Shown here: in pieces, positions 34,813 to 42,155 of the stretch
How the letters are laid out: each line of letters opens with the position of its first letter
Position numbering within the stretch: the first letter of the stretch is position 1
Assembly: GCA_956465555.1 (NCBI GenBank)
Contig: OY101121.1
Span: forward strand, 520,722-584,721
Direction of reading: 5' to 3'
From: Nitzschia sp. pyKryTriq1
Taxonomy: Eukaryota > Bacillariophyta > Bacillariophyceae > Bacillariales > Bacillariaceae
DNA: 64,000 nt
The notes under the pieces: generated by a model
Database searches by the model: none
What the model saw: the letters and a program-made list of their open reading frames with translations, nothing else
Told to the model about the DNA's origin: nothing
Translations under genes and position numbers: made by a program

Positions 34813-35428
34813 TGCTTCCTCTTCCTCTTGATGCTTTTCCCCCAAATGAAATGAACAGTAGAAATGTGCTCGTCGTTGTTGTTGCCGTTGTCGCTATTCA
34901 TTTTTCCTTCTTGGATAACCTGTTTTTGTTGCTACTGTACGTTTCTAGTTTCGGTTTCTCGCCGTTGTTGCTGTTTTCGGGGGAACAAAAAATAGTGAGA
35001 CCAGATTTTTGGAAACGGACCCTTCGACTGACTGCGACTTATCGGTTACCAGTACGAGTACAGTAGGTGAGCGGTCTGTGTTCGTACGGCAGGATGTAGC
35101 ACAATACATCGCATACACGGTACGTAACGGTGCGCCGTACGAGTCCGGTACTCGTAGAGGAGGAGTCGTCGTCTTCATAGCTCTACTACTCTCTACTAGA
35201 GTAGAGGCGTTTGCCACAATAGGAAAAGCGAAAAACGAAAATGATCGCGAGATCATAATAATATCCTCCCTCCAACACACCTCCCTACTCTGAGTAGAGA
35301 CAAAGCACCCTCCGCTCGAAAAGACGCCAGCGGCAGCCGGTGGCGAAATTCTTCAGGAAGATACCTCTTCCGCCACTGCCACCACGAAAACTACTCCAAC
35401 AACAACAGCAGCAGCAGCAAGACCGACA
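34813..35428. other. Intergenic region upstream of the exonuclease gene
   Basis: Low-complexity, with no supported gene. A GCAGCAGCAGCA run lies just before the exonuclease start codon. Confidence 0.4.
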
Positions 35429-37222
35429 ATGGAAAAGCAAGATCGAAAACGACTCAAGAAATTACGCAAACGGGCCTTCGCTGTCCTCCCCGAAGGAGAG
35501 CGAAGTGGTCTTTTGACTCGATTGGAATGGCTAGAATTCCAAAAGTTTGCCGCGATGCTGGGCGCTACGACGGATGATGATGGTGCTACTACTAGCAATA
35601 ATAACAGCGCTGCTGCTGCAGCTGGTGCGGACAACATCCCAGATAATAATAGCACGAGTTCGGTCGGCCCTTTGATTGTCCGAAGGAAGCGCAAAGAGGC
35701 GAACAAAGTGGAAGGATCGCATCATCGGGATCTTGTGGCATGGTTCATGGATCGGATGCGGTACCCTGATGATGATCCACAGTCAAAAAAGAAGCGTGCT
35801 CGAAATCAAAACGATGATGACGATGATCCACTCCAAAATCCAAAAATTCCTTCCTGGGCATCCATCCACAACCCATCTACCATTGGCAACCTCGTTGTGT
35901 TGGAAGTGCAAGTCTCCTCTTCCAAAAATATTAATCAAGAATCATCATCGATTATAGGGAAATGTCAGTCCATTGTGGATGCAGCAGTGTCACAATCGAA
36001 AGGACGCACATCATTGCACTCGCCCACCAAGTGGTTTCAGGGAAATGTTCCCAAGGCCATGTCTGACAGTCTCTTTTACTTTGTGAATACTAGCCAAAGC
36101 AAACGGCCGAAAGTAGAACAAGAAAGTGGTGGTGGGCCGTCTATTGATCAGTTGGTGACGGATATGGAGGAAATGATTTTGCCTCTGGACCAGTGGGGCA
36201 AAGAAGGGTATCCGTTGGCGATCAATCCTGGAAACACAGTCGATCATCATCAAGCCCCATCAATGGTCGCATCGTCGTGGTCGCTTCAAGAATACGATTC
36301 CATCCCAGTTACGGAGGCCAAAGAGTTCGTGGCGAAATTCGGCTTTCGAATCCAGCATCAGAAGGAAGGGGATCAGCAGCTCTATATCAGCACGCAGGCG
36401 TATGGTGCGGATGGAGACGACTCTTCCGAGATTCGTGTGTTTGGTATGGACTGTGAAATGGTGATGACTTCATTGGGTTCCGAATTGGCTCGAATTACCC
36501 TGGTGCAACTCAAATCATTTGAAAACGACAAACTAGAGACAACGACGGTATTAGATGCTCTAGTGAAACCTGAGAATCCAATCAAGGATTACTTGACGCG
36601 TCATTCTGGGATCACGGCAGAGCTACTGAAGCCCGTTTCGACACGATTGCCACAGATCCAAGTAGCACTGTGGAAATTCCTTCGTCCTACTGACATTCTG
36701 GTCGGTCACTCTTTGGAGAACGATTTCCTGGCAGCTCATTATATTCACCCTCGTGTGATTGACACTTCCCTGGTCTTTCAGCACCGCAACAAACGAACGA
36801 AATTTTCCCTCCGGCACATGTCCGCCTCATTGCTCAAAAAGACTATTCAGCAAGGATCTCACTGTAGTAAAGAGGATGCAGAGGCAACCTTGGAGCTAGC
36901 CATTCGGCGAGCATGGTTAAAGGATGGCTTTGCTTTGCCCAATATGGATGAACGCCGGTCGATCCTGGAAAAATGGAACGCCGCCAACGAAATGAAAATG
37001 GTGTGTATTGGTCCCACAGCTTGGCTGCAGACCCATGTGACGAACCAAGCCAATGGCGTTCATGCACTTGGATGCGATTCCATCTCTGATTGTAAGAAGG
37101 CTATATTGGCATGGTCGAAGGGTCCGCGAAAGTCGCATCTCTCTTGGTGCAATTTGAACATTGTGGAGAACTCATCGGATGACGATTTTGGAGCTTTTGA
37201 ACGGCTACTGGTACGAAAATAG
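35429..37222 (+). CDS. REXO/Rex-type DEDDh 3'-5' RNA exonuclease
   Basis: The single exon encodes 597 residues. The N-terminal half is low-complexity and basic/acidic, with a KKRARN nuclear-signal-like stretch. The exonuclease domain occupies about residues 336-495: VFGMDCEMV (ExoI, Asp/Glu), VGHSLENDFLAAH (ExoII, Asp), and HCSKEDAEATLEL (ExoIII, His and Asp). LDALVKPENPI and YLTRHSGIT are typical of the REXO1/REXO5/Rex1 group, which trims the 3' ends of rRNA, snoRNA and tRNA precursors in the nucleus. A C-terminal extension (about 500-597) has no recognisable domain. The exact orthologue (REXO1, Rex3 or REXO5) is not resolved. Confidence 0.88.
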   Translation: MEKQDRKRLKKLRKRAFAVLPEGERSGLLTRLEWLEFQKFAAMLGATTDDDGATTSNNNSAAAAAGADNIPDNNSTSSVGPLIVRRKRKEANKVEGSHHRDLVAWFMDRMRYPDDDPQSKKKRARNQNDDDDDPLQNPKIPSWASIHNPSTIGNLVVLEVQVSSSKNINQESSSIIGKCQSIVDAAVSQSKGRTSLHSPTKWFQGNVPKAMSDSLFYFVNTSQSKRPKVEQESGGGPSIDQLVTDMEEMILPLDQWGKEGYPLAINPGNTVDHHQAPSMVASSWSLQEYDSIPVTEAKEFVAKFGFRIQHQKEGDQQLYISTQAYGADGDDSSEIRVFGMDCEMVMTSLGSELARITLVQLKSFENDKLETTTVLDALVKPENPIKDYLTRHSGITAELLKPVSTRLPQIQVALWKFLRPTDILVGHSLENDFLAAHYIHPRVIDTSLVFQHRNKRTKFSLRHMSASLLKKTIQQGSHCSKEDAEATLELAIRRAWLKDGFALPNMDERRSILEKWNAANEMKMVCIGPTAWLQTHVTNQANGVHALGCDSISDCKKAILAWSKGPRKSHLSWCNLNIVENSSDDDFGAFERLLVRK

Positions 37223-38030: not shown

Positions 38031-39821
38031 ATGGCAGCCCGGCGTCCTGCTGTCAAAAGCTCCCAGCAGGACTGGCATCGGCTGTCATTGATAATTCTTA
38101 CTGTGCTCATTTTCGCTACGATGGCGTTGACAATACTGGTCGCCTCGGCGAAAATCCATTCCTTAGAGGCTTCGTCGCTTCATAGGTACCAAGATGGCCC
38201 ACTGCCTGCGGCTCTTTCCTTCTCCAAGAGTCGGCAGCAGAAGCCTCCTGCCAACGACGACGATTCTACCAGCGACATTCCGTCGGCGATTTTACAAGAT
38301 CCAGAACGGCAACCAATTCTAAAAATATTGCGTGAGGCTGGATACGATTTCAGTAATGCCACGCTTTTCACGCCAGAAACGTGGAAGTCACTTCCACGTT
38401 GGACCGATGTAATGGATCTCTACGGGGAACCAAAGATTTTGGGGTTGGAAACCTGTCAAAGATATCGCGAGCTTGTAGCCAACCCAAAGTTACGAGAACT
38501 CGGAGTGGCAGGGATGTTCGACAGTGGGACGAATATTCTTCATAGTAGTAAGTTCCTATGATACGATCAAAGCAGTGTGGTACGAGGTCGCTGCCTGTCA
38601 CTTTATCTCACAGAACTATCTGGGCTGCTGTTGCTGCAATCAGCGCTGGTTCTCAACTGCCACAATGATCAGGTGGATGGGGGAGGAGTGCTTTGGCAAG
38701 GTAAGTACTTTAGCTGGGAAGATGGCATCCAAAATGTGGTTTCAAGTGAGCCCTAATTCTAAATTCGTCTGGTTCAGTTCCATGGTAGGTACCGGCAATG
38801 CCAGTTCATTTATTCGACGATCAACCTGGTCAGCTACAAGCTAAGTACTTCAACTAACACTTTTGGATATTGTTTGTGTAGGGGAAAGCACATGCCGGTG
38901 TCGGAAAGATCACAGCATGTTGCCAAAGGCAATTCCAATAGGATTTATACCCATGTTCTTCCGGTGGTTTCAGTGAGAGATCCATACACATGGTTGCAGA
39001 GCATGTACGTTTCTTCTTTTTTCACGTTTTTTTCGCTCTTCTTCGAAGATTTGATTTACTACTCGCAGCAATCTCATCTTTTGTCACAACCTTAGGTGCC
39101 GACAAGTAAGCAGGAAAGGAGTGGATTGATTGTCGTCAAAAACCCAAGGTCCAGTAAGGCTAACTAATATCCTTGTTATCTCGACGTTTTCGCAGCCTTA
39201 TGCAGTCCAGTTTGACCATTCAACAGACCCGGAAGAGAATCTATGCCCCAACATTGTGCCCTATCCAGAAGACATCAAACTCCATCCTCGGTAAGTTTGG
39301 CCCATCGTCAGAAACAGGTTGTACCTGACGGTTTCTGCATTCTCTTTCTTTCTTGCATGCAGCCTTTGCAGTCGTAGCTCACACCATCTCTCCTTTCTAG
39401 GTACGGAAAGATGAAGTACCTGCCAGCAACCGCAAAGTACATCAAAGGAGTGACAATCAAGTATCTATCGATTGCCCACATTTACAACGAATGGTACAAC
39501 GCGTATGCCAATGTGACGGAGTTCCCTCGTCTTATCGTACGGATGGAAGATCTTATTTTTCATGGAGATGAAGTACTACCCAAGGTTTGTGAGTGTTTTG
39601 GCGGGGTATATAGCCACGAAGTGCGTCGTACCGCAAACGTTGTCAACCGAAACAGTGGTATCGATACTAGTGTAGGCAGTGGTCTCCTACGATCGGTGAT
39701 CAAGTACGGCAACAAGGCATTGCGGCGGAAGCACTATCAGAAGATTCAGCTAGAAGCTGCCAAAGAAGTGCTGGACCCTCATCTCATGGAACTCTTCGGA
39801 TACAGTTACGAAAATCCTTGA
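38031..39821 (+). CDS. Golgi-type PAPS sulfotransferase, seven exons including 7-nt and 10-nt micro-exons
   Basis: The exons are 38031-38547, 38614-38700, 38778-38784, 38882-39004, 39096-39105, 39196-39290 and 39401-39821, all with GT-AG introns of 66-110 bp. The total is 1,260 nt, 419 residues. A signal-anchor (about residues 19-40) makes it a type II membrane protein. The 5'-phosphosulfate loop is VAGMFDSGTNIL (about 159-170); WQVPWGKH (200-207) is assembled from exons 2, 3 and 4; the 3'-phosphate motif is VVSVRDPYTW (about 232-241); MCRQPYAVQFDH is assembled from exons 4, 5 and 6; and CPNIVP follows. The protein probably transfers sulfate from PAPS to a glycan or small molecule. Exon 1 has two in-phase donors 3 nt apart (after 38544 or 38547); the GTAAGT one is preferred. 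Confidence 0.82.
38778..38784 (+). other. 7-nt micro-exon of the sulfotransferase gene
   Basis: TTCCATG is bounded by GGTTCAG and GTAGGT. Joined to the previous G and the next GGGAAAG it encodes Val-Pro-Trp of WQVPWGKH; reading on through it would meet a stop at once. Confidence 0.75.
39096..39105 (+). other. 10-nt micro-exon of the sulfotransferase gene
   Basis: GTGCCGACAA is bounded by CCTTAG and GTAAGC. It completes Met and encodes Cys-Arg-Gln, linking WLQSM to PYAVQFDH in frame. Confidence 0.75.
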
Positions 39822-40046: not shown

Positions 40047-41298
40047 TGACCTGTGGCGCAGGCGCCAACAAACCCTCAACTCTCTCGGACACTGTAGACC
40101 GATGGTATAGTACTGTTAGTGAAATAATTCGTTGGCCTATGCCCCTGATCGATTCCGATTTGCGTAGCAGGATCGTCCTCTCTCGGGGATACCCTTGGGT
40201 ACATCTCCTTGCCTCGTCCTTGTCAAGGTGTGAAGGGATGGCGGGCGGGTTTTTAAAGCTAATTAATCTAGAATTCCGAAGTTGGGATTTGCGATACCGA
40301 GGTTGACTCGATGATCTTATGAGGTTCATCGGTCGTCTCTCTTGGTATCGGTTTCGGGTTTGGGTGTTCGTTCGACTTCTTGTCTGTCCTTCGTTCGTTG
40401 GGGGTGGCCATGGCGCAGGCGCCAACAAACCCTCAACTCTCTCGGACACTGTAGACCGATGGTATAGTACTGTTAGTGAAATAATTCGTTGGCCTATGCC
40501 CCTGATCGATTCCGATTTGCGTAGCAGGATCGTCCTCTCTCGGGGATACCCTTGGGTACATCTCCTTGCCTCGTCCTTGTCAAGGTGTGAAGGGATGGCG
40601 GGCGGCCATTGAACTAGAAATCCAGCCTCATCAAGGTTGGGTGGGTCCAAAATATCCCTCCTTTATACCCCGATGCAAGTTCGCCTCCGTCTCCGCTGGC
40701 TCGCAGGGCCTTGAAGGTCGCCGATGACGTGGCGCCGAAGAGTTCGTCTACACCTGGAGCTTTTCCTACCCTACGAGTGGTGGGGTTGAAAGTCCCTTCG
40801 ATCGCGTCGTCGGTGATGGTGAGAAAAGTCCCGAGGTGACCCAACCCAGTAACACCTACCAAGACGAAGCCCTCTTGGGTCTTCGCCAAGGTAATGTTGT
40901 GGACGAATTTGACTTCTCCTTCGTTCAAGGCTACCAACATTGTGGCGTCTCCACCTGAGGCTGCTACCTCGAGCTTCATCGTTTCGGTTGTTGTGTTGTT
41001 CGTCGGTTCGAGATTGTCGAGTGGCCCTTCCGATTTCGCCTTCGCCCATGATCCTTCCTGTTGGATCCGCTCCTGGAGGAAATCCTTCCACTTCGGGTTA
41101 CTAGGTTGCGCCATTGAATGGTTTGAAAGTGGCTTTTAAAGCTAATTAATCTAGAATTCCGAAGTTGGGATTTGCGATACCGAGGTTGACTCGATGATCT
41201 TATGAGGTTCATCGGTCGTCTCTCTTGGTATCGGTTTCGGGTTTGGGTGTTCGTTCGACTTCTTGTCTGTCCTTCGTTCGTTGGGGGTGGCCATGACC
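40047..41298. mobile_element. LTR-like composite repeat, unclassified fossil
   Basis: The element runs 40052-41293, starts TG and ends CA, and is flanked by the 5-bp direct repeat TGACC (40047-40051 and 41294-41298). It consists of two adjacent LTR-like units. The first (40052-40410) is block A (195 bp) followed by block B (about 160 bp). The second (40411-41293) is A, a 528-bp unique insert, then B. Blocks A and B look identical between units, so it is young. No reverse transcriptase or typical internal region lies between the units. A 43-bp piece of block A also occurs at 16.56 kb. The family could not be named. Confidence 0.65.
40614..41114 (-). CDS. Hypothetical 166-residue protein inside the LTR-like repeat
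   Basis: An ATG-started frame fills the unique insert between blocks B and A of the composite repeat. The N terminus is MAQPSNPKWKDFLQERIQQE and the C-terminal end is GIFWTHPTLMRLDF; the middle is rich in Gly, Thr and Ala. I recognise no domain. Its confinement to the insert suggests it belongs to the element or was captured by it. It may not be expressed. Confidence 0.35.
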   Translation of the reverse strand: MAQPSNPKWKDFLQERIQQEGSWAKAKSEGPLDNLEPTNNTTTETMKLEVAASGGDATMLVALNEGEVKFVHNITLAKTQEGFVLVGVTGLGHLGTFLTITDDAIEGTFNPTTRRVGKAPGVDELFGATSSATFKALRASGDGGELASGYKGGIFWTHPTLMRLDF

Positions 41299-41483
41299 TC
41301 ATCATTATCGGGACTCGGAATTCGTGACTCCATTGGATGCATCCCAGTGACGTTTTTGATACCTCGATGTGAACGCGACGATGATGATTTTCGAGGAGGA
41401 GGATATGTGAGCTTCCCGGTTGACCGAAGAGAATGTCATGTCTCGCTCTCTTCTCATAAACACCGATCACCCTTTGGCAGACC

Positions 41484-42155
41484 ATGCCGACGACATGGGT
41501 GCTACTGCTACTTGTGTCGTTGTTCCTTCCAGCGACGACCCAAGGCTTCCTCTTTACGAGCATTGGCCGTCGAAGAATCGCCGACAATGCTAGATTTTTC
41601 AATAGACTGAACATGGAATCGGTTGGTGCTGCATCTTTCATGGAGAAACCTGCACCAACATACTCGGTGCGGGCAGGGACAGATGAGGATGTGGAGCTCT
41701 TTGATGAATGGATGGACCGGAATCGAGAGTTTCATTCGGCCTACAATGGAGAGACGAGAACCAGTCAACTAAAATTCAAGAAAGGCAGCGGCCTTCAGGC
41801 TATCGTGCCAAGTCTAGTGAATGCACGAGTGCTCTTTTTGCTCAGGGACGACCTTCCTGATCCTATCGGCTTTTGTTCATACAACATCCAGTACACAGGC
41901 CTGGGTACCCCTCCATTTTTGTATCTGCAAGACATTTTCATTGGGGAAGGCGGTCGTGGATATGGCGCTGGGCGCTTCTTGATGAACGAATTGGAAAATA
42001 TTGCAAAGGGATCTTTCTGCTCTCATATGACCTGGAATGCGGATCGTAGAAATGTTCCGGCTGTTGAGTTCTACGAGCGTTTAGGGGCTGAGAGAACTGG
42101 AGCCACGGATAATTGGATCCACATGCAGTTGTCATTGAAAGCCGACAAAGCCTAA
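41484..42155 (+). CDS. GNAT acetyltransferase with N-terminal signal peptide
   Basis: The single exon encodes 223 residues. A signal peptide (residues 1 to about 20, LLLLVSLFLPATTQGF) precedes the mature domain; the GF junction may be a plastid-type motif, but this is uncertain. The GNAT fold is indicated by PFLYLQDIFIGEGGRGYGAG (beta-4 plus acetyl-CoA loop R-G-Y-G-A-G, about 155-162), then WNADRRNVPAVEFYERLGAE. The combination L(Q/E)DIF ... W...N..A..FY..LGA resembles the spermidine/diamine and thialysine acetyltransferase group. The substrate is inferred at best. It converges on pirin. Confidence 0.8.
   Translation: MPTTWVLLLLVSLFLPATTQGFLFTSIGRRRIADNARFFNRLNMESVGAASFMEKPAPTYSVRAGTDEDVELFDEWMDRNREFHSAYNGETRTSQLKFKKGSGLQAIVPSLVNARVLFLLRDDLPDPIGFCSYNIQYTGLGTPPFLYLQDIFIGEGGRGYGAGRFLMNELENIAKGSFCSHMTWNADRRNVPAVEFYERLGAERTGATDNWIHMQLSLKADKA

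What the first reader, a model, noticed from the sequence alone, without database searches (positions are those of the whole stretch)
38701..39195. Two micro-exons (7 and 10 nt) build the signature of a sulfotransferase
The conserved WQVPWGKH motif can be read only if TTCCATG (38778-38784) is used as a 7-nt exon; the downstream MCRQPYAVQ segment needs GTGCCGACAA (39096-39105) as a 10-nt exon. All seven exons sum to 1,260 nt with intact frame and GT-AG borders. Micro-exons this small are rare and easily missed by gene predictors, which would truncate the protein or lose its PAPS-binding core. Two of them in one gene with ordinary short introns raises the question of how they are recognised.
Basis: partly seen in the sequence, partly recalled or inferred. 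Interest (0 to 1): 0.8.

Follow-up and report, generated by a model that had tools for sequence, protein, structure and literature searches.

The report
Two micro-exons in a diatom gene
A diatom gene that looks like a membrane-anchored sulfotransferase appears to need two tiny coding pieces, 7 and 10 letters long, to spell two of its most conserved protein stretches; related genes in the same genome carry the same stretches unbroken, which supports the tiny exons, although no RNA evidence was available.

Summary
The two micro-exons are in the sequence as described and are very probably real. With TTCCATG (38778-38784) and GTGCCGACAA (39096-39105) the frame is open and every intron is GT-AG; leaving out either or both gives frameshifts and stops. 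The genome holds at least 12 further loci of this family. In 10 of 11 aligned paralogs each disputed stretch is uninterrupted and matches the spliced reading without a gap. The model outscores the other in-frame solutions enumerated. Shuffles reach the observed fit in 21 and 1 of 20,000.

Corrections: intron 1 most likely ends at 38643, not 38613, so the coding sequence is 1,230 nt (409 aa). The sulfotransferase label rests on weak Pfam matches. A donor 4 nt downstream would bypass either micro-exon in frame, but would lose a residue invariant in the aligned paralogs.

New: intron 3 falls at exactly the site of an intron in one paralog and intron 4 within 1 nt of one in another; introns 2 and 5 were seen only here. 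The micro-exons may have arisen when new introns landed 7 and 10 nt from older ones. Splicing is probably stepwise, by intron definition (inference).

The parts
38031..38547 (+). exon 1 (517 nt): N-terminus with a hydrophobic stretch (residues about 18-40, by eye) and GMFDSGTNIL
   Evidence: open frame, GTAAGT donor; aligned with paralogs
   Evidence: with acceptor 38643 the 10 residues after GTN align gap-free with 11 of 11 aligned paralogs; mean family score 399.9 against 387.1
38644..38700 (+). exon 2 (57 nt): ...LVLNCHNDQVDGGGVLWQ
38701..38777 (+). intron 2, 77 nt, GTAAGT donor, CTAAT branch-point-like motif at about -21; position seen only in this gene among 12 aligned members
38778..38784 (+). 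7-nt micro-exon TTCCATG (completes V-P-W)
   Evidence: best of 5 internal-exon and 24 single-intron solutions; 21 of 20,000 shuffles as good; stretch uninterrupted in 10 of 11 aligned paralogs
38785..38881 (+). intron 3, 97 nt, GTAGGT donor, CTAAC at about -24; same codon and phase as an intron of the paralog at C3:1.80 Mb (L020)
38882..39004 (+). exon 4 (123 nt): GKHMP...VSVRDPYTWLQS
39005..39095 (+). intron 4, 91 nt, T-rich (46%); 1 nt from an intron of the paralog at C11:697 kb (L021), with which it shares a 12-mer near the 3' end
39096..39105 (+). 10-nt micro-exon GTGCCGACAA (completes M-C-R-Q)
   Evidence: best of 13 internal-exon and 16 single-intron solutions; 1 of 20,000 shuffles as good; the Cys it encodes and the Tyr of the following PY are invariant in 11 of 11 aligned paralogs
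39106..39195 (+). intron 5, 90 nt, CTAAC at about -32 and CTAAT at about -28; position seen only in this gene among 12 aligned members
39196..39290 (+). exon 6 (95 nt): PYAVQFDHS...LHP
39291..39400 (+). intron 6, 110 nt
39401..39821 (+). exon 7 (421 nt) with PRLIVRMEDL and the stop codon

Best explanation
A probably functional diatom gene of a family of at least 13 loci, likely Golgi-type membrane-anchored carbohydrate sulfotransferases, has seven exons, two of them micro-exons of 7 and 10 nt that are most likely included constitutively. Shown from sequence: the micro-exons restore the frame and spell family-conserved residues. Inferred: each flanking intron is short (77-97 nt) with its own donor, acceptor and branch-point-like motif, so the spliceosome can pair the two ends of each intron (intron definition). 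The two introns beside a micro-exon are removed one after the other, since factors could hardly sit on both sides of 7 nt at once. Inferred origin: introns 3 and 4 are the older ones (or lie at favoured sites), and introns 2 and 5 inserted 7 and 10 nt away later, leaving micro-exons without changing the protein. The confidence given is for the two micro-exons as part of the main transcript; the order of splicing and the origin are less sure.
For: Exact splice borders and open frame. Each stretch is uninterrupted in 10 of 11 aligned paralogs and aligns gap-free; W and K, and C and Y, are invariant in 11 of 11. Best score among the enumerated alternatives. Shuffle controls 21 and 1 of 20,000. 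Introns 2, 3 and 5 carry CTAAY about 21-32 nt before their 3' end; intron 4 has CTCAT at about -19 and is T-rich; all four are of ordinary length for the 14 introns of five family members (71-182 nt). Intron 3 coincides exactly with an intron of L020, and intron 4 lies 1 nt from one of L021 and shares an exact 12-mer with it (20 of 2,000 shuffles reach that score). Removal of the two introns one after another has been proposed for a 1-nt exon in Arabidopsis, citing a 9-nt exon of potato invertase (PMC4674806, abstract and passages).
Against: No RNA evidence and no homologue from another species. The shared intron sites rest on one exact and one near match among five intron-bearing members; the chance estimate (0.003) was made after seeing the data. 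The tree does not resolve the target with L020 or L021 (five of nine inner branches open), so independent insertion at favoured sites is possible. Intron 3 shows no clear similarity to its counterpart in L020 (149 of 2,000 shuffles as good), and the 12-mer shared by intron 4 and L021 is one of five pairs tested and could reflect a common splicing signal. Introns 2 and 3, and 4 and 5, do not resemble each other (1,988 and 247 of 2,000).
Confidence: 0.85

Rival explanations
1. No micro-exons: a donor 4 nt downstream (38705 and 39009) joins exon 2 to exon 4 and exon 4 to exon 6 in frame, giving WQGKGKH and QSMYPYA.
For: In frame and stop-free; the best of the single-intron solutions, with mean family scores 370.5 and 376.1. 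Both micro-exons are 1 mod 3, the same as a 4-nt shift.
Against: Loses the Trp and the Cys that are invariant in 11 of 11 aligned paralogs and shortens the protein by one and two residues; the micro-exon model scores 399.9. It leaves the splice borders around TTCCATG and GTGCCGACAA unexplained.
Confidence: 0.05
2. Decaying gene: the micro-exons are relics and the gene is a pseudogene.
For: The branch is fairly long (1.37 against a median of 0.84). A high-copy repeat lies about 230 nt downstream.
Against: 409-residue open frame through six introns, family-conserved residues retained, GT-AG borders throughout.
Confidence: 0.05
3. Regulated switch: the micro-exons are alternatively included, by skipping (frameshift, probable RNA decay) or by +4 donors (in-frame, probably inactive protein), tuning enzyme level.
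For: Skipping breaks the frame while the +4 donors keep it. Exon skipping and intron retention are reported in the diatom Phaeodactylum (PMC5859163, abstract and passages).
Against: No expression data; a GT at the fifth position of a donor is ordinary, so +4 donors are expected by chance, and one micro-exon length in three is 1 mod 3.
Confidence: 0.1

Closest known systems
Plant micro-exons of 1-15 nt (PMC8831610, Nat Commun 2022; search listing with start of abstract, and passages seen)
   Same: Very small internal exons with canonical borders, often missed in annotation, said to be evolutionarily conserved; more than 2,000 identified
   Different: Supported there by RNA-seq; [quoted passage not shown] Here: a diatom, one gene, no RNA
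Arabidopsis APC11 1-nt exon, and potato invertase 9-nt exon as cited there (PMC4674806; abstract and passages seen)
   Same: Exons far too small for exon definition; removal of the flanking introns one after another proposed
   Different: Splicing was tested with constructs for APC11; here the two micro-exons in one gene are inferred from sequence
Sulfotransferase families PF00685 and PF13469 (Pfam)
   Same: Some paralogs give weak matches; a GTN loop, an R-x7-S motif and a late R-x-ED stretch are present (comparison of motifs recalled)
   Different: The target has no Pfam match and none of its family is among the genome's listed PF13469 matches; no credible relative in PDB sequences and none confirmed in viral contigs or prokaryote genomes

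Membership tests
Micro-exon (internal coding exon of 15 nt or less) | Bounded by AG upstream and GT downstream, 15 nt or less | tested here: met
   7 and 10 nt, GT-AG on all four flanking introns
Micro-exon (internal coding exon of 15 nt or less) | Keeps the frame and encodes residues expected from homologues | tested here: met
Micro-exon (internal coding exon of 15 nt or less) | Present in mature transcripts | not testable with these tools
   no RNA data held
Micro-exon (internal coding exon of 15 nt or less) | Conserved in other species | not testable with these tools
   no other eukaryote genome could be searched; scans of viral contigs and prokaryote genomes confirmed no relative
Sulfotransferase superfamily | Match to a sulfotransferase profile | tested here: inconclusive
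   target: none; of the 11 rows of A1, 4 match PF13469 (best E 0.0013), 2 match PF00685 (best E 0.00042) and 1 matches PF17784 (E 0.15); L020 scores 19.9 bits against a PF00685 cut-off of 22 and L005 14.7 against a PF13469 cut-off of 27; 5 of the 7 proteins of that call had no sulfotransferase match
Sulfotransferase superfamily | 5' and 3' PAPS-binding motifs | tested here: inconclusive
   a GxFxS/TGTN loop (GSTA in L004) and an R-D/N/H-P stretch with Ser eight residues after the Arg (Ala in L006) run through the alignment; equating them with PAPS-binding motifs is recalled, no structure was made
Sulfotransferase superfamily | Sulfotransferase fold and activity | not tested

The most novel reading that the evidence does not exclude
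The gene is a snapshot of micro-exon birth: in a family with several intronless members, new introns inserted twice beside pre-existing introns, 7 and 10 nt away, creating two micro-exons in one gene that an unspecialised intron-definition spliceosome can handle; each can also be bypassed in frame by a +4 donor, so they could act as splice switches.
Probability: 0.3. Interest if true: 0.6.

Novelty: new member of a known kind. Interest (0 to 1): 0.4.

Why it matters
Micro-exons are well studied in animals and plants; the literature searches made here showed no paper on them in diatoms (also the 20 listed papers), in a library that lacks most subscription journals. If real, this gene shows that a stramenopile with short introns splices exons of 7 and 10 nt, that gene finders are likely to misannotate it, and that paralogs within one genome can reveal both the exons and their likely origin. 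It gives a small, testable substrate for the order of intron removal around micro-exons.

Tried and rejected

Introns as copies of a repeated intron family: a DNA search of 38614-39821 in the own genome found only itself at E 0.001 (that search skips very common words), and pairwise scores among the 14 family introns reached 25 against a shuffled maximum of 26. A closer test of five pairs with dinucleotide shuffles gave one suggestive pair, intron 4 with the neighbouring-site intron of L021 (20 of 2,000), and four unremarkable ones (149, 1,988, 247 and 1,987 of 2,000).

Relatives outside this genome: none confirmed in viral contigs (41 pattern matches) or prokaryote genomes (15 pattern matches); in PDB sequences only weak coatomer matches over part of the protein (E 1.2 and 1.4 with the target; E 0.037 to 0.18 with the profile), taken as chance. 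Metagenome contigs had a cap of zero and were not searched.

Chance of two exons of 10 nt or less if six introns fell at random in 1,230 nt: 0.018; a post-hoc figure for one gene picked out because of them.

Literature: 'microexon' with 'diatom' gave one paper, on mouse synapses (listing only); 'micro-exon' with 'Phaeodactylum' gave none; a search needing two of microexon, stramenopile, oomycete, brown alga, dinoflagellate and haptophyte gave 3,461 papers, and the 20 listed had no 'microexon'. Searches were read as listings only, apart from the three papers opened with 'find'. No whole paper was read.

Full report
Observation. Both segments are at the stated places, all six introns are GT-AG, the sum is 1,260 nt and the translation is one open frame of 419 residues. 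Leaving out the 7-nt exon, the 10-nt exon or both gives a frameshift and internal stops.

Independent support from paralogs. The window lies in an unnamed 40.65-Mb genome in 20 contigs. Protein searches found 12 further loci of the family (the tool calls its counts for large families lower bounds). One of them, L009, repeats L008 and was left out of alignments. Eleven paralogs were aligned with the target. Seven of them (L004, L005, L006, L007, L011, L014, L016) are uninterrupted over the matched region, so they show the protein without any splicing assumption. At WQVPWGKH 10 of 11 paralogs are uninterrupted (L020 is not), and at SMCxxPY 10 of 11 (L021 is not); all 11 align with the spliced target there without a gap. 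In the 11 paralogs the Trp and Lys of VPWGKH, and the Cys and Tyr of MCRQPY, are invariant; Val and Pro are kept in 9 of 11 each and His in 10 of 11; Met, Arg and Gln of the 10-nt exon vary.

Chance and alternatives. In 20,000 dinucleotide shuffles of each stretch, a 7-nt exon with AG and GT borders that fits the family as well as TTCCATG arose 21 times, and a 10-nt exon as good as GTGCCGACAA once. Enumerating in-frame, stop-free solutions (internal exon up to 70 nt, introns of at least 40 nt), the micro-exons rank first of 5 and of 13, with a mean family score of 399.9; the runners-up score 386.5 and 386.2. Among 24 and 16 solutions without an internal exon, in the ranges scanned, the best score 370.5 and 376.1. 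These two use donors 4 nt downstream (38705 and 39009) and would keep the frame as WQGKGKH and QSMYPYA, losing the invariant Trp or Cys.

Correction. After the GTN motif all 11 aligned paralogs have 10 residues up to and including the N-C (or N-L) pair. The coding sequence is then 1,230 nt and 409 residues. The upstream acceptor may still be used at times.

What the protein is. The target has no Pfam match and only chance-level PDB sequence matches. Of the 11 rows of alignment A1, 4 match Sulfotransfer_3 (best E 0.0013) and 2 match Sulfotransfer_1 (best E 0.00042); L020 reaches 19.9 bits against a cut-off of 22, and 5 of 7 paralog proteins scanned had no sulfotransferase match. Against the label, none of the family's loci is among the 12 Sulfotransfer_3 matches listed for this genome. 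For it, the conserved GTN loop, the RDP stretch with Ser eight residues after the Arg, and the late RxED resemble sulfotransferase motifs (recalled), and the paralog L011 carries a glycosyltransferase sugar-binding domain (Gly_transf_sug, E 2e-9, over its cut-off) in front of the family domain. An N-terminal hydrophobic stretch suggests a type II membrane protein (read by eye). The most likely reading is a Golgi carbohydrate sulfotransferase; this is inference. No relative was confirmed in viral contigs or prokaryote genomes.

How the micro-exons are probably spliced. The four introns beside them are 77, 97, 91 and 90 nt, within the 71-182 nt of the 14 introns modelled in five family members. 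Introns 2, 3 and 5 carry CTAAT or CTAAC about 21-32 nt before the 3' end, and intron 4 has CTCAT at about -19 and 46% T. Each intron thus has what intron definition needs, with no special signal apparent, though the sample is small. Because factors could hardly occupy both sides of a 7-nt exon at once, the two introns are probably removed in turn, as proposed for a 1-nt exon in Arabidopsis (PMC4674806, abstract and passages). A plant survey likewise says that the machinery cannot assemble at both splice sites of a micro-exon simultaneously (PMC8831610, passages).

Where they may come from. Paralog L020 has an intron in the Trp codon of VPW at exactly the position and phase of intron 3; paralog L021 has one 1 nt from intron 4. 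Introns 2 and 5 were seen in no other aligned member. One exact coincidence together with a second match within 1 nt has a chance of about 0.003 if introns fall at random, but this was computed after the fact. Intron 4 and its neighbour in L021 share an exact 12-mer near the 3' end, which 20 of 2,000 shuffled pairs match in score; intron 3 and its counterpart in L020 show nothing clear (149 of 2,000). The simplest reading is that introns 3 and 4 are older and introns 2 and 5 inserted beside them, creating micro-exons of 7 and 10 nt. Against this, the tree does not place the target with L020 or L021, and the 12-mer may be a common splicing signal, so repeated insertion at favoured sites is not excluded.

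Known or new. Very small exons are known in plants and animals. Two searches for micro-exons with diatom terms gave one irrelevant paper and none, and the 20 listed papers of a broader search held no 'microexon'; the library lacks most subscription journals. I therefore rate it a new member of a known kind, with the birth of micro-exons beside older introns as the more novel reading. The finding rests on sequence alone; RNA evidence is the missing test.

Noticed in passing
window 40054-41295 (G000:C7): A high-copy repeat begins about 230 nt downstream of the gene: two 195-nt copies (100% identical) and two 165-nt copies (99%) in the window. Its first 359 nt gave 77 matches in the genome (40 of 215 candidates scored), 12 of them full-length and 100% identical, the window's own included, which suggests a recently active mobile element.
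   Followed up: partly
window 38548-38643: Two possible intron-1 acceptors 30 nt apart (38613 and 38643), both in frame; homology favours the second.
   Followed up: yes
L011 (G000:C9:1.85 Mb): A family member fused behind a glycosyltransferase sugar-binding domain (Gly_transf_sug, E 2e-9) in one open frame: a glycosyltransferase joined to a putative sulfotransferase.
   Followed up: partly
L008 (G000:C1:4.12 Mb) and L009 (G000:C3:2.99 Mb): Two copies of one paralog on different contigs whose three printed forward frames are identical, while the loci as a whole are not: a recent duplication or an assembly duplicate.
   Followed up: no
G000:C11:697-714 kb (L021, L005, L004): Three family members within about 17 kb, one with introns and two intronless over the matched region.
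   Followed up: partly
window 35294-37222 and 41460-42155, + strand: Neighbours: an RNase_T-type exonuclease and a GNAT acetyltransferase (Pfam).
   Followed up: no
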